Below, piece after piece: positions 7,334 through 64,000 of a stretch of DNA of 64,000 nt. The notes under the pieces are model-generated. The model saw only the letters and a program-made list of their open reading frames with translations. It ran no database searches and was not told the origin of the DNA. The stretch comes from Streptomyces sp. Q6 (lineage in GTDB: Bacteria > Actinomycetota > Actinomycetes > Streptomycetales > Streptomycetaceae): contig NZ_CP146022.1 of assembly GCF_036967205.1 (NCBI RefSeq), positions 2,170,001-2,234,000 of the forward strand, in the 5' to 3' direction. The stretch's first letter is position 1; every line of letters starts with the position of its first letter. The translations under genes and the position numbers were made by a program.

Positions 7334-7416
7334 GCCCGGTTGGCGGAACGGCATACGCTGATGTCTCAAACACATCTGTTCGAAAGAACATGTGGGTTCG
7401 AATCCCACACCGGGCA
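7334..7416 (+). tRNA. tRNA-Leu (anticodon CAA)
   Basis: All cloverleaf arms can be paired: acceptor GCCCGGT (7334-7340) with ACCGGGC (7409-7415); anticodon stem GATGT/ACATC (7360-7364, 7372-7376) with loop CTCAAAC, so anticodon CAA at 7367-7369 reading UUG; long variable arm TGTTC/GAACA (7377-7390) typical of class II leucine tRNA; T stem GTGGG/CCCAC (7392-7396, 7404-7408) with loop TTCGAAT. Discriminator A at 7416. The CCA end is not encoded. It is distinct from the rare-codon tRNA bldA (UAA anticodon). No integrase or duplicated 3' end nearby suggests use as an integration site. Confidence 0.95.
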
Positions 7417-7423
7417 CCTCCTG

Positions 7424-52572: not shown

Positions 52573-52899
52573 GCTCGCGCTCCCCGCTCCCCTGCCCGAG
52601 CCTGGACAAGATCCAGGTTCGGACTCATTCGAAGTCTCTTCCTGGAACACGAAAATACGCGCGAATAATCCTGGCCGCTAGCAAGGAAGGCCGTACTTAC
52701 CTGCGGTTTTGCGCCCTGCGCAACACCCTCGGCGCGGGCTGACCTCGATCTTCCCGCCGTCACCCGTGAGATGGATCACGCGATGGGGCCGTTGACGGCT
52801 GGGAAACATCACCGCAACATCTGTAAACGTTTCCAGTTGCGGGAAACGTTTACAGCAAGAGCCGATACCGGAGCATGCAGGACGTATGGGGGCAAGGGA
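52573..52899. other. Divergent intergenic region between the VIT gene and lacI-type gene
   Basis: 327 bases with no coding pattern. Its main content is the double palindrome at 52821-52855, listed separately, about 45 bases before the LacI start. The in-frame extension of the LacI frame back to 52771 runs through this operator and is not used. Confidence 0.5.
52821..52855. promoter_or_regulatory. Double LacI-family operator upstream of the DraG operon regulator
   Basis: CTGTAAACGTTTCC (52821-52834) is repeated inverted as GGGAAACGTTTACAG (52841-52855). Each arm is itself a near-palindrome around AAACGTTT, the core of LacI/CcpA-type sites, with centres 19 bases apart (about two helical turns). 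Binding by the LacI protein encoded 45 bases downstream, and thus autoregulation, is inferred. Confidence 0.8.
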
Positions 52900-53928
52900 A
52901 TGGGCACGGGTCAACCGACAGTCGTCTCGATCGCCGAGCGCGCCGGGGTCTCCATCGCGTCGGTCTCGCGCGTCCTGAACGGCGTGGGGGCCCGCCGCGA
53001 CACCGTAGAGCGGGTCGAACGCGCCGCCAGCGAGCTCGGCTACGTGCCGAACGCGGTGGCCCGCTCCCTCAAGGGCGGCCGCACCCGCCAGCTCACGTTC
53101 GCGATGCCCGACATCGGCAACCCGGTCTACGTGGCGATGGTCCGCGCGATCCAGACGGTGACGAAGGCCGCCGGGTACCGCCTGCTCCTGCACTCCACGG
53201 ACGCCGTCGTCGACGACGAACTGGCCGTCCTGCGCAGCCTCGGCGACCGCACCAGCGACGGCCTGATCATCTGCCCCATCCGCATCACCGACGACCACGT
53301 GGAGGCGCTGCGCACGGCCGCGGGCCCGGTGGTGGTCATAGGGTCCCTGCCCGACGACGTCCCGGTGGACAGCGTGCGCGCCGACTCCGTCGCCGGGGCC
53401 GAGCTCGCCGTCCGCCATCTGCACGACACGGGCCGCCGCCGGATCGCCTTCGTGAACGGCCCCTCGGACACGGTCCCCGGCCACAACCGCGACCGGGGCT
53501 ACCGCGCCGCGCTCGCCGACTGCGGTCTCGTATACGACCCGTCGCTCGTGCGGCACACCGACTTCGGGATCGAGTCGGGCGCCGAGGCCGCCGAGGCGCT
53601 CCTCGACCACGCCCCCGACGCGGTCTTCTGCGCCAACGACCAGCTGGCGCTCGGCGCCGCCCGCGCCCTGCACGCCCGTGGCCTGCGCATACCCGAGGAC
53701 GTCGCCGTCGCGGGAATGGACGACAGCATGCTCGCGCAGGCCGGCTGGCCCCCACTGACCAGCGTCGACCTCGGCTCCACGGAGCGCGGCCGGCGCGCGG
53801 CAGAACTGCTTCTGGAGCGCCTCGGCATCGCCGGGGCCTCCACCGGGAACCCACCACCCCGGAGCACCACCGCCCCTCCCCGCCTCGTCGTCCGTGCCTC
53901 CACAGGCCCGGCGGCGACCGACAGTTGA
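52900..53928 (+). CDS. LacI-family transcriptional regulator
   Basis: Repressor of 342 residues probably controlling the sugar-transport and DraG operon that follows. N-terminal helix-turn-helix VSIAERAGVSIASVSRVLNG (about residues 9-28), hinge region, then a periplasmic-binding-like ligand domain (DGLIICPIRITDDHVEAL, CANDQLALGAARALHARG). ATG 52900 is preceded by GGGGGCAAGGGA, closely spaced. A strong double operator lies 45 bases upstream. The gap to the permease gene is 16 bases, so regulator and transporter are cotranscribed. The effector is unknown. Confidence 0.9.
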   Translation: MGTGQPTVVSIAERAGVSIASVSRVLNGVGARRDTVERVERAASELGYVPNAVARSLKGGRTRQLTFAMPDIGNPVYVAMVRAIQTVTKAAGYRLLLHSTDAVVDDELAVLRSLGDRTSDGLIICPIRITDDHVEALRTAAGPVVVIGSLPDDVPVDSVRADSVAGAELAVRHLHDTGRRRIAFVNGPSDTVPGHNRDRGYRAALADCGLVYDPSLVRHTDFGIESGAEAAEALLDHAPDAVFCANDQLALGAARALHARGLRIPEDVAVAGMDDSMLAQAGWPPLTSVDLGSTERGRRAAELLLERLGIAGASTGNPPPRSTTAPPRLVVRASTGPAATDS

Positions 53929-53944
53929 GAACGCGAGGACCCTC

Positions 53945-54904
53945 ATGCGCCTCACCGCCTCCCGGGACAGCGCCGTCCCGGGCAGTCGCGGCACACCGCC
54001 GCCCCGGACCCCGGCCCAGCGCAAACGCGCGCTCGGCCTGGACCGGGACGCGTGGTTCCTGCTGCTTCCCGCGCTGATCCCGATCCTGATACTCAGCGTC
54101 GGACCGCTCCTGTACGGCGTCGCGCTCGCGTTCACCGACTCGCAGGCGGGCCGCACGGCACCCACGCAGTTCATCGGCCTCGACAACCTCCTGGACCTGC
54201 GCCACGACAACCTGTTCTGGGAGTCGTTCCGCATCGGCCTGATCTGGGCGGTGTGCGTCACGGCCCTCCAGTTCGTCCTGGCCCTCGGCCTGGCGCTGCT
54301 GCTGAACCAGAATCTGCGCTTCCGCTGGCTGGCCCGCACCCTCGCCCTGGTCCCCTGGGCGATGCCGGAGGTCGTGGTCGGCATCATGTGGCGCCTCGTC
54401 TACCACTCGGACGCGGGCATCCTCAACAAGACGCTGACCCAGCTCGGCGTCATCCACGAGAACGTCGACTGGCTCGCGGACCTCTCCTACGCGCTGCCCG
54501 CGGTCATCGTCGTCGGGGTCTGGGCGGGCATGCCGCAGACCACAGTGGTCCTCCTCGCGGGCTTGCAGAACGTGCCGCACGAACTGCGCGAGGCCGCCCA
54601 GCTCGACGGAGCGGGCCTGTGGCGCCGCTTCACGACGGTGACCTGGCCGGCGCTCAAGCCCGTGGTCATGGCCATCACCGCGCTCAACTTCATCTGGAAC
54701 TTCAACTCCTTCGGCCTCGTGTACGTACTGACCCAGGGCGGCCCCGGCGGCCAGACCCGCCTGCCGATGCTCTTCGCGTACGAAGAGGCCTTCAAGTACG
54801 GCCAGTTCGGTTACGCGGCGGCGATGGGCCTGGTCATGGTCGCGGTGATCGCCGTCCTGCTGACCCTCTTCCTCCGTACGAAGCTGAAGGAGGACGCGGC
54901 ATGA
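53945..54904 (+). CDS. ABC sugar transporter permease (MalF/CUT1 type)
   Basis: Membrane subunit of 319 residues with six predicted helices after a cytoplasmic N-terminus rich in Arg and Pro. The EAA loop, which docks the ATPase, is ELREAAQLDGAGLWRRF. ATG 53945 follows GAGGA. Its stop overlaps the start of the second permease (ATGA). No ATPase gene is in the operon, as usual in Streptomyces where a shared ATPase of the MsiK type serves many importers. Confidence 0.92.
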   Translation: MRLTASRDSAVPGSRGTPPPRTPAQRKRALGLDRDAWFLLLPALIPILILSVGPLLYGVALAFTDSQAGRTAPTQFIGLDNLLDLRHDNLFWESFRIGLIWAVCVTALQFVLALGLALLLNQNLRFRWLARTLALVPWAMPEVVVGIMWRLVYHSDAGILNKTLTQLGVIHENVDWLADLSYALPAVIVVGVWAGMPQTTVVLLAGLQNVPHELREAAQLDGAGLWRRFTTVTWPALKPVVMAITALNFIWNFNSFGLVYVLTQGGPGGQTRLPMLFAYEEAFKYGQFGYAAAMGLVMVAVIAVLLTLFLRTKLKEDAA

Positions 54905-55749
54905 GCACGAGCACGACCCTCTCCCGAACCGCGGGCCGGACCGGCCAGTACCTGGCCCTGCTCTGCTACATGGTGTTCCTGGCCTTCCCCTTCCTCTGGC
55001 TCCTCTCGACATCCTTCAAGTCGCCACAGGAACTGGGCTCGATCGATCCGACGTGGTTCCCGCAGCACCCGAGCCTGGACAACTACCGCGCGGCCTTCGA
55101 CGCGCAGCCGCTCCTGCACTCGGCGCTCAACAGCCTGATCGTCGCGGTGAGCGCGTCGCTGATCTCGGTGGCGATCGCCGTGCCCGCGGCGTACGTGATG
55201 GTCCGTTACCGGTCCCGGGTCAGCCAGGCGGGCACGGTCTGGATCCTGGTCAGCCAGATGTTCCCGTTCGTCCTGGTGATCATCCCGCTGTTCCTGGTGC
55301 TCAAGAACCTGCACATGATCGACAGCATCCCCGGCCTGATCATCGTGTACGTCGTCTGGAACCTGCCCTTCTCCCTCTGGATGCTCCAGGGCTACGTCAA
55401 GTCGGTGCCGCGCGAACTGGAGGAGGCGGCGGCGATGGACGGCGCGGGCCGCCTGCGCACGCTCACCAATGTCGTCCTGCCCCTCCTCGCGCCGGGCCTG
55501 GTGGCGACGCTGATGTTCAGCTTCGTGACGGCCTGGAACGAGTTCTTCTTCGCGCTCGTGCTTCTCAAGTCTCCGGAGAACCAGACGATGTCGGTCATCC
55601 TCACCCGCTTCCTGGGCGCCGAGGGCGTCGCCGACCTCGGCCCGCTCGCGGCGGCCTCGGTCCTCGCCACGATCCCCAGCCTCGTCTTCTTCGCGCTGCT
55701 GCAACGCCGGCTCGTGGGCGGCATGCTCGCCGGGGCGGTGAAGGGCTGA
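54901..55749 (+). CDS. ABC sugar transporter permease (MalG/CUT1 type)
   Basis: Second membrane subunit, 282 residues, six helices. EAA loop ELEEAAAMDGAGRLRTL in the expected position before the last two helices. The start ATG 54901 overlaps the previous stop; the stop TGA shares its A with the ATG of the binding-protein gene (TGATG). Forms a heterodimer with the MalF-type permease. Confidence 0.92.
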   Translation: MSTSTTLSRTAGRTGQYLALLCYMVFLAFPFLWLLSTSFKSPQELGSIDPTWFPQHPSLDNYRAAFDAQPLLHSALNSLIVAVSASLISVAIAVPAAYVMVRYRSRVSQAGTVWILVSQMFPFVLVIIPLFLVLKNLHMIDSIPGLIIVYVVWNLPFSLWMLQGYVKSVPRELEEAAAMDGAGRLRTLTNVVLPLLAPGLVATLMFSFVTAWNEFFFALVLLKSPENQTMSVILTRFLGAEGVADLGPLAAASVLATIPSLVFFALLQRRLVGGMLAGAVKG

Positions 55750-57068
55750 TGCGTACAAGGAAGCCGACAGCACTGGTCACGGCGGCCCTCGCCCTCACGC
55801 TCGTCGCGGGCTGCACCGGATCGGACGACGACGCGGACGGCACGGTCACCCTCGAATTCCTCAGCCTCGCCTGGCAGAAGGAGTCGGTGGACGCCAACAA
55901 GGCCCTGGTCAAGCAGTGGAACGACACCCACTCGACGGTCAAGGTCACATACGTACAGGGCAGTTGGGACAACATCCACGACCAGCTGCTCACGTCCTTC
56001 GAGGGCGGCGAGGCGCCGGACATCTTCCACGACGACGCCTCCGACCTCACGGACTTCGCGAACGGCGGCTACCTGGCCGACCTCACTCCGTACCTCCCGA
56101 AGTCCCTCCGCGCGGACATCCCCCAGGCGTCCTGGAACACCACCACCTATGACGACAAGACGTACGGCGTCCCGTTCCTCCAGGAGCCGCGCGTCCTCAT
56201 CGCGAACACCAAGCTCCTCAAGCAGTCCGGAGTCCGCATCCCCACGGCCCAACACCCCTGGACCTGGGCGGAATTCGAGAAGGCGAGCAAACGCCTGACG
56301 AAGAACCCCGGCACCACCACCAACGACGACAAACCCCACACCTACGGCGTGGCGTGGTCGATGAAGGAGCCGGTCAGTCAGTCGGTCAATCTCTCCCTCT
56401 CCACCGGCGGCAAGATCTTCTACAAGGACGCGGACGGCAAGAACGAGATCCGCTACGACGCGGCGGACTCAGCGGTCGCCCAACTGATCAACCGCCAGGT
56501 CAACCAGGACCACACCGCGCCCAAGACGGGCCTGGGCATGTCGGGCTCGGACACGCTGCCCGGCTTCTTCGCCGGCCGCTACGCGATGCTGCCGCTCAAC
56601 TTCTCGTACCGCCAGCAGGTCAAGCAGCAGGCGCCCAAGGGCTTCGACTGGACGGTCCTGCCGATGCCGTCGGGCGAGGGAGGCACGGCCCAGGGCACCG
56701 CACCCCAGACCCTCTCGGTCTCCGAGGACAGCAACCACAAGCAGGAGGCCACCGACTTCATCGCCTTCCTCACGCAGGCACAGCACCAGGTCGAACTGGC
56801 CCGAGGGGACTGGCTGTTGCCCACGAGCACCAAGGCGCTGAAGGACCCGTCCCTCACGACGACCGCGTACGGCTGGAAGACGGGGGCGGACATAGCGACG
56901 TCCCTGCGCCCGTCGCCGGTCCTGGGCGTCCGCGGCTATGCGGAGTGGAAGGACAAGATCGCGACTCCGGCCTACCAGGAGTACTACAACGGCGCGTTCG
57001 GGGTGGACGAGCTACGCAAGCGCCTGGCCCAGGACGGCAACAGAATCCTGGACCGCTACCAACGCTAA
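55749..57068 (+). CDS. ABC transporter substrate-binding lipoprotein (family 1, MalE-like)
   Basis: Extracellular receptor of 439 residues. Lipobox LVAGC gives Cys22 as the lipidated residue. The fold is the extracellular-solute-binding family 1 type: WQKESVDANKALVKQWNDTH, GGEAPDIFHDD, TYGVPFLQEPRVLIANTKLL. It defines what the operon imports, but the ligand cannot be read from sequence. It differs from classical maltose/trehalose receptors enough that I do not assign a sugar. It is third in the operon, unusual in that it follows the permeases. A 226-base repeat-rich gap separates it from the first DraG gene. Confidence 0.9.
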   Translation: MRTRKPTALVTAALALTLVAGCTGSDDDADGTVTLEFLSLAWQKESVDANKALVKQWNDTHSTVKVTYVQGSWDNIHDQLLTSFEGGEAPDIFHDDASDLTDFANGGYLADLTPYLPKSLRADIPQASWNTTTYDDKTYGVPFLQEPRVLIANTKLLKQSGVRIPTAQHPWTWAEFEKASKRLTKNPGTTTNDDKPHTYGVAWSMKEPVSQSVNLSLSTGGKIFYKDADGKNEIRYDAADSAVAQLINRQVNQDHTAPKTGLGMSGSDTLPGFFAGRYAMLPLNFSYRQQVKQQAPKGFDWTVLPMPSGEGGTAQGTAPQTLSVSEDSNHKQEATDFIAFLTQAQHQVELARGDWLLPTSTKALKDPSLTTTAYGWKTGADIATSLRPSPVLGVRGYAEWKDKIATPAYQEYYNGAFGVDELRKRLAQDGNRILDRYQR

Positions 57069-57129
57069 ACGCCCCGAGCCCCCTCACGACCCCAACAACC
57101 GACCCCACAACCACCGCCACAACCACAAC

Positions 57130-57168
57130 CACCGCCACCGCCACCGCCACCGCCACCGCCACCGCCAC
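57130..57168 (+). repeat. CACCGC hexanucleotide microsatellite
   Basis: Thirty-nine bases of uninterrupted CACCGC units in the gap between the binding-protein gene and the first DraG-type gene. Around it the sequence is also repetitive (ACTGGCACA and AACTAGCA variants from 57175 to 57275). Confidence 0.9.
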
Positions 57169-57294
57169 AACTCAAACAACTGGCACGGCTAGCACAGCTA
57201 ACACAACTGAAACAACTAGCAAAATCGACATAACTAGCACCACTGGCACAACTGGCACAAATGGCACCACCCCACTAGAGAGCACGAGCACACC

Positions 57295-58368
57295 ATGAGC
57301 GTCAGCGTCGACCCAGATCCATCGGCTCGCAGGCTCCGCACGGTCCCGCACCCCACACCCCCGGCCGCGATCACTCCGCGGGACCGTGCCCGCGGCGCGC
57401 TCCTGGGACTGGCTGTCGGCGATGCGCTGGGCGCGCCCGCCGAGAACATGAAGCCGTCCCAGATCCGCGAACGCTGGGGCCGCATCGAGGGGTTCGTCTC
57501 CGACAACCCGGCAGGGACGGACGACACCGAGTACGCGATCTTCTCGGGCCTGCTGCTGGCCGAGCACGGCGCGGCCCTCACCATCGCCGACGTGGAGGCG
57601 GCCTGGCACACCTGGATCGCGGACCAGGACGAGGGCCCGTTCAAGGGTGCCGGGTTCAGCGAACGCGGCACCCTGGAGAACCTGCGCCGGGGCCTGGCCG
57701 CCCCCATCTCGGCCCAGCACCGCCACGCGTGGAGCGACGGCCTGGCCATGCGCGCGGCACCCTTCGGCGTCTACGCGGCCGGCCGCCCCGCCGAAGCCGC
57801 CCGCCTGGTCTCGATCGACGGCACGGTGTCGCACGACGGCGAGGGCATCCACGGCGGCCGGGCAGTGGCGGCGGGCGTGGCCGCCGCCATGGTCAGCCAC
57901 AACCCCGACGCGGTGGTCCAGGCAGCCCTCTCCGTGGTCCCCGAGGACTCCTGGACGGCCCGCTCCCTGCACCGCGCCGTGTCGGCGGCGCGCCGGGCCC
58001 GCCGCGACCCGGACGCCACCCAACTCTCCATGGAAAGGGCGGTACGCAAGGCCGTCGTGATCGGCGGCTACCCCTGGACGGACCTGGCACCGGAGGCGGT
58101 CGGCCTCGCCTTCGGGGCGTTCGCGGTGGCCCGAGGCGACTTCAGCGAGTCGATCCTCACCGCGGTCAACATGGGCCGCGACGCCGACACCACGGCCGCG
58201 GTCGCGGGAGCACTGGCCGGGGCACTCTGCGGCGAGGCGGCGATCCCCGAGGTCTGGGCATCGGCGATCGGCCCGGTCCGCGGCAGCTGCCTCCCGTCCA
58301 TGGCGGGCCGCCACATCCTGGACGTGGCGGACCAGCTGTCACCGCCGCCCCCGGGAGCCGTGGCATGA
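57295..58368 (+). CDS. ADP-ribosylglycohydrolase (DraG) family protein 1
   Basis: A 357-residue all-helical di-magnesium hydrolase. All metal motifs are intact: GDALGAPAE (42-50), TDDTE (75-79) and GRDADTTAA near residue 292. The family removes ADP-ribose from arginine, serine or nucleic acid, or cleaves related glycosides. Here it follows a sugar importer, which argues for a small-molecule glycoside as substrate over a protein (inference). ATG 57295. Its stop overlaps the start of a small frame at 58365. Confidence 0.85.
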   Translation: MSVSVDPDPSARRLRTVPHPTPPAAITPRDRARGALLGLAVGDALGAPAENMKPSQIRERWGRIEGFVSDNPAGTDDTEYAIFSGLLLAEHGAALTIADVEAAWHTWIADQDEGPFKGAGFSERGTLENLRRGLAAPISAQHRHAWSDGLAMRAAPFGVYAAGRPAEAARLVSIDGTVSHDGEGIHGGRAVAAGVAAAMVSHNPDAVVQAALSVVPEDSWTARSLHRAVSAARRARRDPDATQLSMERAVRKAVVIGGYPWTDLAPEAVGLAFGAFAVARGDFSESILTAVNMGRDADTTAAVAGALAGALCGEAAIPEVWASAIGPVRGSCLPSMAGRHILDVADQLSPPPPGAVA

Positions 58369-58643
58369 CGACCACCACCCGCACCCGCCCACGCACCGGG
58401 CGGGGACGCGTCGGGGTGCCCCCGCAGGACTCCGCAGGCACTCAGCACACCCGTACCCGACTTCGGTCGTCCGGAGGCGACGAGACCCATCCGGCCGAGG
58501 AGGCACCCCGACGCGGCCCCGCCCCACCCCGCGACGGACGGCGACCGTCCGAGGCCCCTCCGGCACATGAGAAGCGGGCCCCGAGGCAGAGCCCCGCGAC
58601 CTCGCCCGAGAACACCCGCACCACCGAAAGGCCCCGCCCATGA
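58365..58643 (+). CDS. Possible small disordered basic protein inside the DraG operon
   Basis: A 92-codon frame that starts with ATG on the DraG1 stop (ATGA) and ends with TGA on the DraG2 start (ATGA), filling the gap exactly. The product would be rich in Arg, Pro, Thr and Ser with no hydrophobic core. The perfect double overlap argues for translation; the low-complexity content argues against a folded protein. It may serve only to couple translation. Confidence 0.4.
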   Translation: MTTTTRTRPRTGRGRVGVPPQDSAGTQHTRTRLRSSGGDETHPAEEAPRRGPAPPRDGRRPSEAPPAHEKRAPRQSPATSPENTRTTERPRP

Positions 58644-59809
58644 CCCCCGCGGACGCGCCCCGCATCGAGGGCCTCCTTCTGGGCATCGCCGCAGGCGACG
58701 CAGCCGGCTGGCCCTCGGGCCGGCACCGCGCCGCCCGCCTGCCCGACTGGACCCGCCGCCTCACCCGCGAACTCGACACGTTCGCCGAGCAGAACGCCAC
58801 CACGACCCTCCCGGTCCCCATCGCCCTGAACCAGCCCCCCGAACCCCTGCGCCTCGGCCCGTCCGACGACGCGGAGTGGGCGGCCTTCACCGCGCAGGCC
58901 GTCCTCGACGCGTACGCGGCGGGCCTCAGCGACCTCCCGCCCGACCAGAGCGTCCGCTCGGCGCTCGCCCTCGCCTGGAACAACCTCGCGGACGAGATCG
59001 CGGCGGCGGCGGCCCGAGCGGACGAGATCGAGTCGGCGCGCATGCCGCTGCGCGCCCGCATCTCGGTCCGGGCGGGCCTGGGCAACCTGGCCGCGGGCCT
59101 GCGCCCTCCGGCGACCGGCCACGACAACCCGCACTACTTCGACGACGCGGCCTGCGTACGCGCCGCCGTCCTCGCGGTGGTCCATCCGGGCGACGCCCAA
59201 CGGGCCGCGGATCTGGCCGAGTTCGACGCCCGCTACACCCAGGACGGCGACGGCGTGCACGGCGCCCGCGCGATGGCGGCAGCCGTCGCGACGGCGCTCG
59301 GCGGCGCGGCCGTGGACGTCTGCGTGGACGAGGCGCTCGCGCAGCTTCCGCCGGGCACGGAGATCCATCGCAACGCCCACCGCGCGGTCGAACTCGGCCG
59401 GGCGGCGGCCACGGCCCGCCCCGGCCGCCACGGCAACGCGTTCGCGCTCGTCCCCGTCCTCGAACACGAGATCGTCGACCACGTCTACAGCTACGGCATC
59501 GCGGCGGCGGAGACCGTCCCGGTGGCGCTGGCCGTGGCGACGGCGGCCGCGGGCGACGTCACCGAGGCGGTGCCCACGGCGGCCTGCCTGTCCCGCGTCG
59601 CGGACTCGGCCCCGGCGCTGGCCGGAGCGCTCACGGGCGCGATCGGCGGCGCGGAGGCGCTCCCCGACACCTGGCGGGACGCCTGCCGCGTCCTCGCGGG
59701 CTGCGCCCTGCCCCGCCTCGCGGGCACGGACCTCATCGACCTGGCCGCCCGCCTGTCACAGATCACTTCGTACTCGAACTCCCCCGCCTTGAAGGGAACG
59801 TCGGCATGA
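58640..59809 (+). CDS. ADP-ribosylglycohydrolase (DraG) family protein 2, degenerate metal site
   Basis: A 389-residue relative with the same helical layout, but with altered metal ligands: the N-terminal motif is GDAAGWPSG (lacking the final Glu), TDDTE is replaced by SDDAE, and the C-terminal GRDADT equivalent is SRVADS, losing the first Asp. It retains GALTGAIGG after it. It may be a non-catalytic partner or have a changed mechanism. ATG 58640 and the ATGA overlap with the next gene keep it in the coupled series. Confidence 0.75.
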   Translation: MTPADAPRIEGLLLGIAAGDAAGWPSGRHRAARLPDWTRRLTRELDTFAEQNATTTLPVPIALNQPPEPLRLGPSDDAEWAAFTAQAVLDAYAAGLSDLPPDQSVRSALALAWNNLADEIAAAAARADEIESARMPLRARISVRAGLGNLAAGLRPPATGHDNPHYFDDAACVRAAVLAVVHPGDAQRAADLAEFDARYTQDGDGVHGARAMAAAVATALGGAAVDVCVDEALAQLPPGTEIHRNAHRAVELGRAAATARPGRHGNAFALVPVLEHEIVDHVYSYGIAAAETVPVALAVATAAAGDVTEAVPTAACLSRVADSAPALAGALTGAIGGAEALPDTWRDACRVLAGCALPRLAGTDLIDLAARLSQITSYSNSPALKGTSA

Positions 59810-60954
59810 CCACCGTTTCGTTGGAAGACCGCATCACCGGCGCCCTCGTAGGAGCCGCTGTGGGCGACGCGCTCGGCGGCCCCGTCGAGGGCTGGACCCC
59901 GGAGGCCATCGCGGAGCGCCACGGCGGCCGGGTCCGCGGCATCGTGGAGCCGTTCTACAAGGACGACTGGAGGACGGCGAGGCCGATCGCGCCGTACCAC
60001 AAGGGCGACGGTCACGTCACCGACGACACTCTCATGACGCACGCGCTGATCCGCGTGTACGAGAAGGTCCGCGACCACCTCGACGCGTACTCCGTGGCGG
60101 ATCACCTGGTCCCGGACCTGATCACGACTCCGCGCTGGATCCCGGAGCTGGAGGCGGAGGCCCTCCCCCTCCAGCGCATCTTCCTGGCGGAGAAGTGGAT
60201 CGTGGCGCGGATCCACTACGGCCACGTCGACCCGCGTGAGGCGGGCGTCGGCAACATCGTGAACTGCGGTGCGGCGATGTACATGGCGCCGGTGGGCGCG
60301 GTCAACGCGGGCAACCCGCTCAAGGCGTACGAGGAGGCGCTGGATGTCGCGGGCGCGCACCAGAGTTCGTACGGCCGTGAGGCGGCGGGGGTCTTCGCGG
60401 CGGCGGTAGCGGCGGCCCACAAACCGGACGCGACACCCACCACGGTGATCGACGAGGTTCTGGCGCTGGCGAAGGACGGGACGAAGTCGGCGATCGAGGC
60501 GGTCTGCGAAGTGGCGGGCCGCTACGACGACTTCGAGGAGGCGCTGAAGCCGCTGCGTGCGGCGGTGGCTCCGTTCGACACGGTGGGCGACGAGTACCGC
60601 AAGCCGTCGCTGGGGGCGCGGCGCCCGTCGCGGCTGCACGCGATCGAGGAACTCCCGGTGGCGCTGGGCATGTTGCTGGTGGGCGGCGGCGACTTCCGGC
60701 ACACCGTCCTCGGTTCGGTGAACTACGGCCGGGACTGCGACTCGATCGCGACGATGAGCGGCGCGATCGTCGGTGCGCTGTACGGGGAGAGCGCGGTGCC
60801 CAAGGAGTGGAGCGCGGAGATCGCGCGGGCGAGCAAGCTGGACCTGCACTGTCCGGCGGCGTCGCTGGCGAGGATCACGCGTGAGGTGTACGCGAAGGAC
60901 CAGGAGCGCCGCCGGGCCCACGAGTCCGCGTTCGCGGCGATCACGGCGCTGTGA
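59806..60954 (+). CDS. ADP-ribosylglycohydrolase (DraG) family protein 3
   Basis: A 382-residue family member with complete motifs: GDALGGPVE (20-28), TDDT (72-75) and NYGRDCDSIATMSGA near the C-terminus. Contains several extra Trp and aromatic residues (FYKDDW, TPRWIPELE) that may shape a pocket different from DraG1. ATG 59806 follows GAAGGGA and overlaps the previous stop. Sequence divergence from DraG1 is large, so it is not a recent duplicate. Confidence 0.85.
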   Translation: MTTVSLEDRITGALVGAAVGDALGGPVEGWTPEAIAERHGGRVRGIVEPFYKDDWRTARPIAPYHKGDGHVTDDTLMTHALIRVYEKVRDHLDAYSVADHLVPDLITTPRWIPELEAEALPLQRIFLAEKWIVARIHYGHVDPREAGVGNIVNCGAAMYMAPVGAVNAGNPLKAYEEALDVAGAHQSSYGREAAGVFAAAVAAAHKPDATPTTVIDEVLALAKDGTKSAIEAVCEVAGRYDDFEEALKPLRAAVAPFDTVGDEYRKPSLGARRPSRLHAIEELPVALGMLLVGGGDFRHTVLGSVNYGRDCDSIATMSGAIVGALYGESAVPKEWSAEIARASKLDLHCPAASLARITREVYAKDQERRRAHESAFAAITAL

Positions 60955-62312
60955 TGCTCCGCCTGACCTGGGTCCAGCCCGAGGACCTGATCGGCCACGA
61001 ACTGCGCCAGGCGGCGCAGGACGGCCGGGACGCCGCCGCGATCGAGGCGCGCTGGACGGCGGCGGGCGGCCACTTGGCGCCGCCCCGGGCCGGCGCTTCA
61101 GCGACACCGCCGAACGCGGAACTGAAACTGCTGGCCACGGAGTTGCTCGCGGAACTGGCGGCGATGACCCCGCCCCCCACGGCAGTGGACGAGCCCACGG
61201 ACCTGGAGGCGATCAAGGCGGCCTGCCCTGCGTGGCCCACCGCGAGGACGCCCTCGGCCGCGTACGGCACGAAGGCACTGCATGCGGCATGGCTGGGCAG
61301 GGCGGCAGGCTGCCTCCTGGGCAAGCCGGTGGAGAAGCTCCCTCTCAAGGGCATCCGAGCCCTGGCGCGGGCCACGGGCAACTGGCCGCTGCGCGGCTGG
61401 TTCACGGAGGTGGGCCTGGACCGGGAGACGGCCGCGGCGTACCCCTGGAACCGCCGCAGCGCGCCCACCTCGCTCGCCGAGAACATCGACGGTATGCCGG
61501 AGGACGACGACCTCAACTACCCGCTCCTGGCGCTGCTCCTGCTCCGGCGGCACGGTGCCGGCTTCACCACCGAGGATGTGGCGAAGCTGTGGCTGGACGA
61601 GCTCCCGGCGGGCCGTACGTTCACGGCGGAGAGGGTCGCGTACCGCAATCTCCTCGACGGCCTGGAGCCCCCCGCGACGGCGGTGCACCGCAACCCGTTC
61701 CGGGAGTGGATCGGCGCGCAGATCCGGGCCGACGTCTTCGGCTGGACGAACCCGGGCGACCCGGGGCGGGCGGCCGAGCAGGCGCACCGGGACGCCGTCC
61801 TGACGCACACGGCGAACGGCGTGTACGGGGAGATGTTCACGGCGGCGGTCATCGCGGCGGCGGCGTCGGGCACGACGGACGTGCACGGGGCGCTGCGGGC
61901 GGGCCTCGCGGTCGTGCCGCCGCGGTCGCGCTACGCGAAGGCGATCGACCTGGGCATCCGCCTGGCCGCGGAGCACAGCGACTTCGACCGGGTGGCGGAC
62001 GAACTGCACGCCGTCTACGCCGACCACCACTGGGTGCACGTCCTGCCGAACGCGGCGCTCCTGGCCGCGGCGCTCACCCACGCGGACGGCGACTTCGGCG
62101 CCTCCGTCTGCCGTGCGGTGGAGGGCGGTTGGGACACGGACTCGAACGGCGCGACGGCCGGCTCGATCGCGGGCCTGCTGGCGGGGGACCCGGACGCGCT
62201 CGGCGAGGCGTGGACGGCCCCGTTGAAGAACCGCTTGGCGACCACGGTGGGCGGTTTCGACGGCATCGGCTTCGACGAACTGGCCCGGCTCACTCTGGAG
62301 GCCCGCACATGA
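60951..62312 (+). CDS. ADP-ribosylglycohydrolase (DraG) family protein 4, extended variant
   Basis: The longest of the four, 453 residues, with about 100 residues before the core. Its motifs belong to a different subgroup: GCLLGKPVEKL in place of GDALG, EDDDLNY in place of TDDT, and GGWDTDSNGATAGS at the C-terminal metal site. That last pattern is common in family members next to sugar or nucleoside uptake genes. GTG 60951 overlaps the DraG3 stop; ATG 60954 is the alternative. Its stop overlaps the CoA-transferase start. Confidence 0.82.
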   Translation: MMLRLTWVQPEDLIGHELRQAAQDGRDAAAIEARWTAAGGHLAPPRAGASATPPNAELKLLATELLAELAAMTPPPTAVDEPTDLEAIKAACPAWPTARTPSAAYGTKALHAAWLGRAAGCLLGKPVEKLPLKGIRALARATGNWPLRGWFTEVGLDRETAAAYPWNRRSAPTSLAENIDGMPEDDDLNYPLLALLLLRRHGAGFTTEDVAKLWLDELPAGRTFTAERVAYRNLLDGLEPPATAVHRNPFREWIGAQIRADVFGWTNPGDPGRAAEQAHRDAVLTHTANGVYGEMFTAAVIAAAASGTTDVHGALRAGLAVVPPRSRYAKAIDLGIRLAAEHSDFDRVADELHAVYADHHWVHVLPNAALLAAALTHADGDFGASVCRAVEGGWDTDSNGATAGSIAGLLAGDPDALGEAWTAPLKNRLATTVGGFDGIGFDELARLTLEART

Positions 62313-63541
62313 CGACCCCTCAAAATCACCACCGGCCGAACCCTCCGCACCAACCCCAGGGCCCCCTGAAGGGCTTGCGCGTCCTGGACCTGGCCACTCT
62401 CTTCGCGGGTCCGCTCTGCGCCACGATGCTCGGCGACTTCGGCGCCGAGGTCATCAAGGTGGAGCACCCGCGCAAGCCGGACCCGTCGCGCGGCCACGGC
62501 CCGTCGAAGGACGGCGTGGGCCTGTGGTGGAAGACGCTGGGCCGCAACAAGAAGAATCTCACCCTGGACCTCTCCTCCCCCGGCGGCCGCGAGGTCCTGC
62601 TCAAGCTGGCGGCCGAGTCGGACGTGATCGTCGAGAACTTCCGTCCGGGCACCCTGGAGAAGTGGCACCTCGGCTGGGAGGAGCTGTCGGCGGCGAACCC
62701 CCGCCTGGTCCTGGCGCGTGTCACCGGCTTCGGCCAGTTCGGCCCGTACGCCCGCCGCCCCGGATTCGGCACGCTCGCGGAGGCCATGTCGGGCTTCGCG
62801 GCGATCACGGGCCAGCCGGACGGCCCGCCGACGCTCCCTCCGTTCGGCCTCGCCGACTCCATCGCCGCGCTGGCCACCTCGTACGCGATCATGGCGGCGC
62901 TGCGCGGCCGGGACACGACCGGGCGCGGCCAGGTCGTCGACATGGCGATCATCGAGCCGATGCTGGCGATCCTCGGCCCGCAGGCCACGTGGTACGACCA
63001 GCTCGGCTACGTCCAGCCGCGCACCGGCAACCGTTCGACGAACAACGCGCCGCGCAACACGTACCGCACCAGCGACGGCCTGTGGGTGGCGGTCTCGACC
63101 TCGGCCCAGTCGATCGCGGAGCGCGTGATGCGTCTCGTGGGGCGGCCCGAGTTCATCGAGGAGGAGTGGTTCGGGTCGGGTGCGGGCCGCGCCGCTCACG
63201 CGGACGAACTGGACGAGGCGGTCGGCGGCTGGATCGCGGCCCACACCCGGGACGAGGTCGTGGCGGCCTTCGAGCGGGCGGAGGCGGCGATCGCCCCGAT
63301 CTACGACGTCCGTGACGTGATGCGGGACGAGCAGTACCGGGCGCTGGGTTCCATCACCGAACTCCCGGACCCGGACCTCGGCACGGTCAAGATGCAGAAC
63401 GTCCTGTTCCGCCTCTCCGAGACCCCCGGGGCCATCAGGTGGACGGGCCGGGAGCACGGCGCGGACACCGACGAGGTCCTCGACGGCCTCGGTCTGACGG
63501 AGGCGGACATCGTGGCGCTGCGAAAGGCCGGTGCGGTATGA
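62309..63541 (+). CDS. CaiB/BaiF family (class III) CoA-transferase
   Basis: Transfers CoA between carboxylic acids; 410 residues, the family's usual length. Motifs: LKGLRVLDLATLFAGPLCA, LGDFGAEVIKVEHP, NFRPGTLEKW, and the catalytic Asp in GRGQVVDMAIIEPM. The first 18 residues are a Pro/His/Asn-rich extension. ATG 62309 overlaps the DraG4 stop and the stop overlaps the CitE-like gene, tying acid activation to the glycohydrolase genes. Likely activates an organic acid for the lyase encoded next. Confidence 0.9.
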   Translation: MTTPQNHHRPNPPHQPQGPLKGLRVLDLATLFAGPLCATMLGDFGAEVIKVEHPRKPDPSRGHGPSKDGVGLWWKTLGRNKKNLTLDLSSPGGREVLLKLAAESDVIVENFRPGTLEKWHLGWEELSAANPRLVLARVTGFGQFGPYARRPGFGTLAEAMSGFAAITGQPDGPPTLPPFGLADSIAALATSYAIMAALRGRDTTGRGQVVDMAIIEPMLAILGPQATWYDQLGYVQPRTGNRSTNNAPRNTYRTSDGLWVAVSTSAQSIAERVMRLVGRPEFIEEEWFGSGAGRAAHADELDEAVGGWIAAHTRDEVVAAFERAEAAIAPIYDVRDVMRDEQYRALGSITELPDPDLGTVKMQNVLFRLSETPGAIRWTGREHGADTDEVLDGLGLTEADIVALRKAGAV

Positions 63542-64000
63542 CCACCAGGCGGCACACCCCACAGAACACCTGGCCGAACACCCCCCGGACCACCTCTGCG
63601 AACACGCCCCGGACCACCTCTCAGCCGGTGCACGTCACCTGGCTGTACGCCCCTGGTGACCGCCCCGATGTCGTCGCCAAGGCCCTCGGCTCGGGCGCCG
63701 ATGTGGTGCTGGTCGACCTGGAGGACGCGGTCGCCCCGGACCGCAAGGCGTACGCCCTCGACGCGACGGCCGAGCTGCTGGCCGACCGGCCCGAGGTGCC
63801 GGTGCATGTGCGCGTGAACGCGCTCGACGGTCCGCTCGCCGAGCACGAGGTACGCCGTCTCGCCGCGCTGCCGGGCCTGGGCGCGCTGCGTCTGCCGAAG
63901 GTGCACGGCCCGGCGGACCTGGCGCGGGTCGCCGACTGGACGGGCGAGGGGCCCGAAGACCTGCCGCTGTACGCCCTGTTGGAGTCGGCGCTCGGCGTCG
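63538..64000 (+). CDS. CitE-like (HpcH/HpaI family) lyase, cut by the window edge
   Basis: The frame begins with ATG 63538 on the CoA-transferase stop and runs to the end of the window without a stop (154 residues visible). After a repetitive Thr/Pro/Asn N-terminus (about 30 residues) it shows the family opening WLYAPGDRPDVVAKALGSGA and the metal-site region VVLVDLEDAVAPDRK, then HVRVNALDGPL and LRLPKVHGP. Family members cleave or form malyl-, citramalyl- or related CoA thioesters. With the CoA-transferase this makes a plausible activate-and-cleave pair. Confidence 0.85.
   Translation, partial: MTTRRHTPQNTWPNTPRTTSANTPRTTSQPVHVTWLYAPGDRPDVVAKALGSGADVVLVDLEDAVAPDRKAYALDATAELLADRPEVPVHVRVNALDGPLAEHEVRRLAALPGLGALRLPKVHGPADLARVADWTGEGPEDLPLYALLESALGV
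63577..63621 (+). repeat. 24-bp tandem repeat in the start of the CitE-like gene
   Basis: Units at 63577 and 63601 (AACACSCCCCGGACCACCTCT plus GCG after the first), giving two NTPRTTS stretches in the N-terminal extension of the protein. Confidence 0.8.

What the first reader, a model, noticed from the sequence alone, without database searches (positions are those of the whole stretch)
52821..64000. Operon joining a sugar importer, four DraG-type glycohydrolases, a CoA-transferase and a CitE-like lyase
One plus-strand unit encodes a LacI regulator, two CUT1 permeases, a lipoprotein receptor, four ADP-ribosylglycohydrolase-family proteins, a CaiB/BaiF CoA-transferase and a CitE-like lyase. The last six junctions are all 4-nt ATGA/GTGA overlaps (58365, 58640, 59806, 60951, 62309, 63538). 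I know of no described pathway with this set. DraG proteins are best known for reversing protein or nucleic-acid ADP-ribosylation, yet here they sit with uptake and acid-CoA catabolism. Hypothesis: import of an N- or O-glycoside, hydrolysis to sugar and acid, CoA activation and C-C cleavage.
Basis: partly seen in the sequence, partly recalled or inferred. Interest (0 to 1): 0.85.

Follow-up and report, generated by a model that had tools for sequence, protein, structure and literature searches.

The report
Four-DraG riboside catabolic operon in actinomycetes
Soil actinomycetes carry a conserved gene cluster in which four enzymes of a family known for removing ADP-ribose tags sit with a sugar importer, a ribose kinase and two acid-degrading enzymes, which suggests that these enzymes help digest an unknown ribose-containing compound as food.

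Summary
The gene set is real: LacI, two sugar-type permeases, a lipoprotein receptor, four PF03747 (DraG/ARH) proteins, a CaiB CoA-transferase and a CitE/RipC-like lyase. Two of six claimed overlaps belong to a 92-codon ORF that is not conserved. The link is not accidental: of 42 genomes with a DraG4 orthologue in a class-wide draw, 41 have CaiB and CitE in the same locus (the other is cut by a contig end), and all 22 assessable loci outside Streptomyces also carry LacI and importer. Relatives reveal a missing member, a ribokinase, in 34 of 42; three of five tested pass NCBI's ribokinase cut-off. Twin LacI operators at 52821-52855 are, within two mismatches, the only ones in the 8.95-Mb genome. 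Against a strict import pathway, most Streptomyces keep the DraG and CoA genes but lack the importer beside them. Best reading: a catabolic unit for a riboside, with DraG-fold riboside hydrolases, ribose phosphorylation and CoA-dependent cleavage of a hydroxy-acid. Substrate and reactions are unproven; the syntenic S. coelicolor proteins SCO2028 and SCO2030 were inactive on uracil-ADP-ribose (PMC13036486).

The parts
52821..52836 (.). LacI operator 1 (CTGTAAACGTTTCCAG)
   Evidence: only such sites in the window and, within 2 mismatches of a 15-mer, in the whole genome; AAACGTTT lies near the lacI start in 33 of 34 distinct lacI-bearing loci
52840..52855 (.). LacI operator 2 (CGGGAAACGTTTACAG), centre 19 bp from operator 1
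52900..53928 (+). LacI-family regulator (342 aa with ATG start downstream of the operators)
53945..54904 (+). CUT1-type permease 1 (319 aa)
54901..55749 (+). CUT1-type permease 2 (282 aa)
55749..57068 (+). Lipoprotein solute-binding protein, SBP_bac_1 (439 aa)
57295..58368 (+). DraG1, PF03747; canonical TDDT and GRDADT metal motifs; by synteny S. coelicolor SCO2028
   Evidence: synteny inferred
58365..58643 (+). 92-codon ORF, judged not a gene (listed because the finding counted it)
58640..59809 (+). DraG2, PF03747, degenerate metal site (V, L or T in place of the first C-terminal Asp in 81 of 81 aligned)
59806..60954 (+). DraG3, PF03747; TDDT and GRDxDS motifs; by synteny SCO2030
60951..62312 (+). 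DraG4, PF03747 with about 105-residue N-terminal extension; EDDDL and GGWDTDS motifs; DraG/ARH fold predicted
62309..63541 (+). CaiB/BaiF family III CoA-transferase with LAD motif
63538..64000 (+). CitE/RipC-like C-C lyase (continues to L009:13465, equal to window position 64464)

Best explanation
A LacI-controlled catabolic operon for a ribose-containing conjugate. Proposed working: (1) LacI holds the promoter shut at twin operators until the substrate or a product appears (inferred from the sites). (2) The lipoprotein receptor and the two permeases import the conjugate, with an ATPase encoded elsewhere (inferred; no ATPase gene is in the operon). (3) DraG1, DraG3 and DraG4, which keep the two-metal ligand motifs of DraG/ARH enzymes, hydrolyse ribosyl bonds of the substrate or of related substrates; DraG2, which has lost one metal ligand, is an altered or supporting partner (motifs shown, activity inferred). 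(4) Ribose is phosphorylated by the operon's ribokinase in relatives, and in this strain probably by another kinase, such as the 45%-identical one at G000:C1:3086960 (gene shown, role inferred). (5) The released acid receives CoA through CaiB, and the CitE/RipC-like lyase cuts the resulting beta-hydroxyacyl-CoA into an acyl-CoA and a keto acid, as citramalyl-CoA lyases do (inferred from families). No hydratase was seen in the operons read, so the acid should already carry its hydroxyl group, as malate-, citramalate- or HMG-type acids do (inference).
For: Co-conservation over five families, 42 orthologue-bearing genomes of an even class-wide draw, all read: DraG3/4 42, CaiB 41, CitE 41, DraG2 40, DraG1 39, ribokinase 34, LacI, permeases and receptor 23 each. 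Same content, except the ribokinase, in shuffled order in L125. DraG1 and CaiB agree in 58 of 61 Streptomyces genomes, p 1.2e-11. Ribokinase identity: TIGR02152 309.8, 304.6 and 317.0 (above the 299.65 cut-off), 298.9 and 295.5 (just below) in five operon copies. Operators unique in the genome, beside lacI in 33 of 34 distinct lacI-bearing loci and absent from 62 of 62 lacI-less named loci that hold DraG1 and its upstream region. Metal motifs conserved in DraG1 (77 and 78 of 78), DraG3 (91 and 92 of 92) and DraG4 (85 of 85). CitE: RipC_Ccl is the best NCBIfam model, and the closest solved chains are named acyl-CoA lyase or citrate lyase. In 4 of 9 genomes of other families searched, every PF03747 match lies in this operon. 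Of 11 loci of distant DraG4 homologues read, 5 have importer genes of this type nearby, one of them with a nucleoside hydrolase gene (L127) and one with ribokinase-like kinase, importer and DraG4 divergent from DraG1-DraG2 (L131).
Against: No substrate or activity is shown for any member. The importer is missing beside the core in most Streptomyces loci measured, and 12 of 44 DraG1-positive genomes have no receptor match at E 1e-60. One Streptomyces (G625, L146) keeps receptor and permeases and lacks DraG1, DraG3 and CaiB. The window's operon has no ribokinase, nor do 7 other of the 42 loci (one cut by a contig end). L131 has kinase, importer and DraG1/2/4 homologues but no DraG3, CaiB or CitE match, so the acid branch is separable. 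CitE and CaiB fall well below every specific NCBIfam cut-off. Six of the 11 distant DraG4-homologue loci show no importer like the window's. Another S. coelicolor DraG homologue, SCO5809, does act on ADP-ribosylated RNA ends (PMC11833690, passages). CUT1 importers more often carry oligosaccharides than nucleosides (recalled).
Confidence: 0.5

Rival explanations
1. Riboside (nucleoside-type) salvage only: importer, DraGs and ribokinase take a riboside apart, while CaiB and CitE serve a separate acid, such as malate-, citramalate- or itaconate-type acids, and merely share the transcript.
For: L131 has importer, ribokinase-like kinase, DraG4, DraG1 and DraG2 homologues without CaiB/CitE. Known DraG-transporter-kinase trios without CoA genes exist: E. 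coli yegTUV (PMC10819704) and S. epidermidis SERP2218-2216 (PMC3637587). The CaiB plus CitE pair alone resembles acid degradation.
Against: CaiB and CitE are in the DraG locus in 41 of 42 genomes over five families; CaiB comes and goes with DraG1 in Streptomyces; both remain where the importer is absent. They are tied to the DraGs more tightly than the importer is.
Confidence: 0.25
2. The DraGs are ordinary ADP-ribosylhydrolases that strip ADP-ribose from proteins, nucleic acids or small molecules, and the other genes recycle the products.
For: Family and fold: PF03747, DraG/ARH metal motifs, solved relatives DraG, MJ1187 and ARH3. S. coelicolor SCO2028-2031 are listed as DraG/ARH homologues (PMC9411070). 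Another homologue of that strain, SCO5809, removes ADP-ribose from RNA phosphate ends (PMC11833690, passages).
Against: No ADP-ribosyltransferase among the operon's genes; four copies with a sugar-type regulator, importer and, in relatives, ribokinase. DraG1 and DraG3 are far below the DraG and Tri1 equivalog cut-offs: 75.9 and 51.8 of 337, 52.3 and 51.8 of 490. SCO2028 and SCO2030 showed no activity on U-alpha-ADP-ribose (PMC13036486), though that is a single substrate.
Confidence: 0.15
3. The substrate is a glycoside of another sugar or a sugar acid, the ribokinase homologue having drifted, and the extra FGE-domain protein in some loci of other families reflects an oligosaccharide diet.
For: Importer of the CUT1 type; a protein with an FGE-sulfatase-like domain sits between ribokinase and CaiB in 15 of 42 loci; an FGGY kinase gene lies next to CitE in L122.
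Against: Three of five operon kinases tested pass the curated D-ribokinase cut-off and the other two lie within 5 bits of it.
Confidence: 0.1

Closest known systems
E. coli yegTUV with its repressor GgaR/YegW (PMC10819704, passages read)
   Same: Transporter, DraG-like protein and putative sugar kinase in one transcript under a nearby regulator with a single genomic target
   Different: MFS symporter instead of an ABC importer, one DraG instead of four, GntR instead of LacI, no CoA-transferase or lyase; function of its enzymes also unproven (a link to ADP-glucose is proposed)
S. epidermidis SERP2218-2216 / S. haemolyticus WCH1 region R1 (PMC3637587, passages read)
   Same: ADP-ribosylglycohydrolase, nucleobase-type permease and ribokinase side by side
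   Different: No LacI, ABC importer, extra DraGs or CoA genes in that region
Itaconate/citramalate degradation: CoA-transferase with RipC/Ccl (S)-citramalyl-CoA lyase, and Rv2498c (PMC6689899, passages read)
   Same: CitE here is best matched by the RipC_Ccl model and by solved lyases 8khl, 9nzb and 3qll; pairing with a CaiB-type transferase is recalled for such pathways
   Different: No hydratase gene seen in the operon; score far below the equivalog cut-off; coupled to DraGs, ribokinase and importer
S. coelicolor SCO2028-SCO2031 (PMC9411070, PMC5087735, PMC13036486, passages read)
   Same: By synteny the DraG1-4 of a model strain, listed in print as uncharacterised DraG/ARH homologues (PMC5087735 lists three of the four)
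   Different: Papers treat them as possible ADP-ribosylhydrolases; the passages I read do not mention neighbouring CoA, ribokinase or importer genes
Rhodospirillum rubrum DraG and human ARH3
   Same: Fold and metal-binding motifs
   Different: Remove ADP-ribose from nitrogenase reductase or protein serine (recalled; DraG also); not part of a catabolic operon

Membership tests
ADP-ribosylglycohydrolase superfamily (PF03747) | Whole-protein score above the Pfam gathering score | tested here: met
   All four DraGs: 199, 125, 181 and 167 bits against 26.2
ADP-ribosylglycohydrolase superfamily (PF03747) | Two-metal ligand motifs: N-terminal DD and C-terminal GxDxD[TS] (roles recalled) | tested here: met
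   DraG1, DraG3, DraG4. DraG2 fails: the first C-terminal Asp is V, L or T in 81 of 81 aligned sequences, one further row gapped
DraG / ARH ADP-ribosylhydrolases sensu stricto (TIGR02662, NF041672) | Score above the curated equivalog cut-off | tested here: not met
   DraG1 75.9 of 337 and 52.3 of 490; DraG3 51.8 of 337 and 51.8 of 490; DraG2 and DraG4 no match
DraG / ARH ADP-ribosylhydrolases sensu stricto (TIGR02662, NF041672) | Release of ADP-ribose from a modified target | not testable with these tools
   In print: SCO2028 and SCO2030 inactive on U-alpha-ADPr (PMC13036486); other linkages not reported for them in the passages read
CaiB/BaiF family III CoA-transferase | PF02515 match and the Asp-bearing LAD motif (motif role recalled) | tested here: met
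   414 bits against 23.3; motif in 90 of 90 orthologues
(S)-citramalyl-CoA lyase RipC/Ccl (NF038242) | Score above the equivalog cut-off | tested here: not met
   147.6 of 375, although it is the best NCBIfam model
HpcH/HpaI-CitE superfamily (PF03328) | Pfam gathering score | tested here: met
   116 bits against 25; DLEDAV in 87 of 88 orthologues
Ribokinase (TIGR02152), operon member in relatives | Score above the equivalog cut-off | tested here: met
   3 of 5 copies above 299.65, two at 298.9 and 295.5; absent from the window's operon
yegTUV-type transporter-DraG-kinase operon | Transporter, DraG and PfkB kinase in one unit with a local single-target regulator | tested here: inconclusive
   Gene content met in relatives and a single operator locus here, but the kinase is missing in the window and the transporter class differs
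Anti-phage defence systems (PADLOC-DB) | Match to any PADLOC model at E 0.001 | tested here: not met
   No match for DraG1-4 or CaiB; the other genes were not scanned

The most novel reading that the evidence does not exclude
DraG-fold enzymes form a metabolic branch of riboside hydrolases: four of them divide the linkages of one imported ribose conjugate whose acid part is burned through a citramalyl-CoA-type cleavage, making this a previously undescribed actinobacterial carbon-source pathway and a non-signalling job for the ADP-ribosylhydrolase fold.
Probability: 0.4. Interest if true: 0.8.

Novelty: new variant of a known kind. Interest (0 to 1): 0.6.

Why it matters
Bacterial DraG/ARH homologues are often assumed by name to reverse ADP-ribosylation. 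For S. coelicolor the number of such hydrolases has been read as a sign of a lively ADP-ribosylation metabolism (PMC5087735, passage), and eight DraG/ARH homologues are listed (PMC9411070, passage). If four of those eight belong to a catabolic operon, the count is misleading and substrate screens should turn to small ribosides. The conserved operon, with its own operators, receptor and, in relatives, kinase, makes the question directly testable: the receptor's ligand and the deletion phenotype would name the substrate.

Tried and rejected
Chance neighbourhood: rejected by conservation over five families and by co-occurrence. Short ORF 58365-58643 as a gene: rejected. Defence island: no PADLOC match for DraG1-4 and CaiB. 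Importer relocated in other Streptomyces: a 57-66% identical receptor lies elsewhere in many genomes. In the 10 such loci read (L140-L145, L147-L149, L152), both permeases are present in all and a glycosyltransferase-like gene, recognised by eye, in 8; but a receptor match is only weakly associated with DraG1 (32 of 44 against 8 of 17, p 0.076), so I do not claim it as the same importer. DraG2 structure: AlphaFold2 model of mean pLDDT 53, not used. DraG4 model (pLDDT 76) gave only the DraG/ARH fold; the VIA-align library was not available. Naming the substrate from the CitE or CaiB subfamily: no curated equivalog cut-off was reached. Ten paper searches: no listed title or abstract start described a pathway with this gene set; I read passages of eight papers, none in full, and subscription papers are mostly not held. 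A phylum-wide draw with DraG3 found only genomes of the window's own genus (10 of 396 at E 1e-30), so it added no new lineage.
Full report
What is there. The window is G000:C1:2170001-2234000 of an 8.95-Mb genome. The locus shares its flanks (gltB and VIT on one side, lgt on the other) with named Streptomyces records, so I infer a Streptomyces; VIT and LGT are Pfam matches, gltB and the trp genes were recognised by eye. On the plus strand lie LacI (52900-53928), permease 1 (53945-54904), permease 2 (54901-55749), lipoprotein receptor (55749-57068), DraG1 (57295-58368), DraG2 (58640-59809), DraG3 (59806-60954), DraG4 (60951-62312), CaiB (62309-63541) and a CitE-like gene (63538 to 64464, its end lying in L009). 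Pfam confirms every family. The next gene, lgt, is on the other strand, so the unit ends with CitE. The 92-codon ORF counted between DraG1 and DraG2 is not a gene by composition, family search and conservation, which removes two of the six claimed overlaps.

Regulation. Two 16-bp near-palindromes, CTGTAAACGTTTCCAG and CGGGAAACGTTTACAG, sit with centres 19 bp apart at 52821-52855, just before LacI. In the window the 12-mer with one mismatch occurs only there: 4 strand-wise matches against 0.05 expected, 0 of 100 shuffles reaching 4. In the whole genome the 15-mer with two mismatches occurs only there (4 strand-wise matches; reversed control pattern 1). AAACGTTT lies within 700 bp before the lacI start in 34 of 35 lacI-bearing loci (L137 has none; L187 repeats the L124 genome, so 33 of 34 distinct loci), and nowhere in 62 of 62 lacI-less named loci that hold DraG1 with upstream sequence. 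LacI thus looks like a dedicated, single-target regulator. Binding is inferred, not shown.

Conservation. An even draw of 246 genomes from the class gave 49 with a DraG4 homologue at E 1e-20. Seven of these have only distant homologues (36-47% identity); the remaining 42, at 53% or more and in five families, have an orthologue, and I read all 42 loci. Counts of 42: DraG3 42, DraG4 42, CaiB 41, CitE 41, DraG2 40, DraG1 39, ribokinase 34, LacI, permeases and receptor 23 each, an FGE-domain protein 15. The missing CaiB/CitE (L123) and DraG1/DraG2 (DraG1 in L126, L170, L172; DraG2 in L126, L172) lie beyond contig ends. Of the 24 loci outside the window's genus, 22 carry LacI and importer and the other two are cut by contig ends. 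Of the 18 Streptomyces loci only the window's shows the importer; 16 lack it and L170 is cut. Order is constant except in L125, where CaiB-CitE stand first, DraG3-4 precede DraG1-2 and no ribokinase was found. In 71 loci (70 named records and the window's L009) the VIT-DraG1 gap is 175-434 bp in 62, holds LacI only in 2 and the full importer in 7. L150 and L151 are Streptomyces with the complete operon including ribokinase, in another genomic setting. A tree of 83 concatenated DraG3-DraG4-CaiB sequences, rooted on L126, puts importer-bearing loci near the base and in several Streptomyces branches. Some deep supports are weak (0.24, 0.28, 0.47), and its kinase label for L151 is wrong because the gene caller fused two ORFs. 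So 'ancestral full operon, importer lost in most Streptomyces, ribokinase lost several times' is likely, not proven.

Co-occurrence. In 61 Streptomyces genomes (the window's and 60 drawn) DraG1 and CaiB (at least 75% identity) are both present in 42, both absent in 16 and discordant in 3; the three (G604, G619, G634) have 560-1140 contigs (p 1.2e-11). DraG1 and DraG3 agree in 59. A receptor match at E 1e-60 is present in 32 of 44 DraG1-positive and 8 of 17 DraG1-negative genomes (p 0.076). Related genomes are not independent, so these p values overstate. Against a strict importer link: 12 DraG1-positive genomes have no receptor match, and G625 keeps receptor and permeases at the native site while DraG1, DraG3 and CaiB are not found (L146).

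The missing member. Between DraG4 and CaiB, 56 of 103 loci (three of them pieces of the window's own genome) have a gap over 500 bp; the 12 I printed all encode a PGGKGANQ kinase. Five copies score 309.8, 304.6 and 317.0 bits, above NCBI's D-ribokinase cut-off of 299.65, and 298.9 and 295.5 just below it. The window's operon lacks it; the best match in its genome is 45% identical, at C1:3086960. This is the strongest hint at the sugar. In 15 of 42 loci an FGE-domain protein follows the kinase; the four I read have 638-704 codons.

The DraGs. DraG1, DraG3 and DraG4 keep both metal motifs in all or all but one of 78, 92 and 85 orthologues; DraG2 keeps the first, but the second has V, L or T instead of its first Asp in 81 of 81 aligned sequences, one more row being gapped. 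Solved relatives of DraG1 and DraG3 include MJ1187, R. rubrum DraG, the immunity-type protein 6dre and ARH3. DraG4 has no sequence match in the PDB at E 0.001; its AlphaFold2 model (pLDDT 76.3, pTM 0.84) matches DraG and ARH3 with probability 1.00. DraG1 and DraG3 are far below the DraG and Tri1 equivalog cut-offs. By synteny they are S. coelicolor SCO2028-2031: four consecutive DraG homologues in print (PMC9411070, passage) a few genes before trpX, SCO2038 (PMC5036795, abstract start in the listing). SCO2028 and SCO2030 were purified and inactive on U-alpha-ADPr (PMC13036486, passages). Against my reading, SCO5809, another homologue of that strain, reverses ADP-ribosylation of RNA phosphate ends (PMC11833690, passages). 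In 4 of 9 genomes of other families searched (G226, G168, G090, G102) all PF03747 matches lie in this operon.

The acid end. CaiB belongs to family III (414 bits, LAD motif in 90 of 90), with PDB relatives such as benzylsuccinate, formyl-CoA and succinate-HMG CoA-transferases. CitE has RipC_Ccl as its best NCBIfam model (147.6 of 375), and its best solved relatives are 8khl, 9nzb and 3qll. Lyases of this superfamily cut beta-hydroxyacyl-CoAs such as citramalyl-, malyl- and HMG-CoA, and the same paper warns that functional assignment by bioinformatics alone is unreliable here (PMC6689899, passages). I saw no hydratase gene in the operons read.

Recurrence elsewhere. Of 11 loci of distant DraG4 homologues read (L127-L136, L139), 5 have importer genes like the window's nearby (L127, L131, L132, L134, L135), 3 a ribokinase-like kinase (L128, L131, L132), one a nucleoside hydrolase (L127) and one an HpcH/HpaI-fold protein (L135); the other six show no importer matching the window's. 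Known DraG-transporter-kinase trios are E. coli yegTUV and SERP2218-2216.

Conclusion. The best reading is a catabolic operon in which DraG-fold enzymes work as riboside hydrolases and the acid product is cleaved as a CoA ester; confidence 0.5, because no substrate or activity is known. The trio of transporter, DraG and kinase has precedents, so I rate it a new variant of a known kind.

Noticed in passing
L127:6213-15094: A distant DraG4 homologue lies with importer genes, a ROK regulator, an inosine-uridine nucleoside hydrolase family protein and a GFO/IDH/MocA dehydrogenase.
   Followed up: partly
L131:4877-19010: Reduced version: ribokinase-like kinase, two permeases, receptor, DraG4 homologue and LacI, divergent from DraG1 and DraG2 homologues, with no DraG3, CaiB or CitE match; a further 651-aa DraG-like protein sits next to a BPD_transp_2 permease.
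   Followed up: partly
L120:12547-14460 and equivalents in 15 of 42 loci: A protein with a C-terminal FGE-sulfatase-like domain and an N-terminal part without Pfam match is inserted between ribokinase and CaiB.
   Followed up: partly
L146 (G625:C1:6172001-6191000): Receptor and permeases kept between lgt and VIT while the DraG and CoA genes are gone: the reverse of the usual Streptomyces loss.
   Followed up: no
G615:C1: DraG1 (7.16 Mb), DraG3 (8.84 Mb) and CaiB (4.05 Mb) lie far apart in a one-contig genome; real dispersal or an assembly artefact.
   Followed up: no
L140-L145, L147-L149, L152 (Streptomyces): Importer genes 57-77% identical to the operon's recur elsewhere in many Streptomyces, in 8 of these 10 loci with a glycosyltransferase-like gene (by eye) and in none with a LacI match.
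   Followed up: partly
window 57069-57294: The receptor-DraG1 spacer is an odd A/C-rich run of CACCGC and AACTGGCAC-like repeats; measured by tblastn ends, the largest gap of 9 loci is 230 bp and the median 67 bp.
   Followed up: no
window 7334-7418: tRNA-Leu (caa), the only tRNA gene of the window; the first 14 kb have lower GC (0.67-0.68) than 14-28 kb (0.70-0.77).
   Followed up: no
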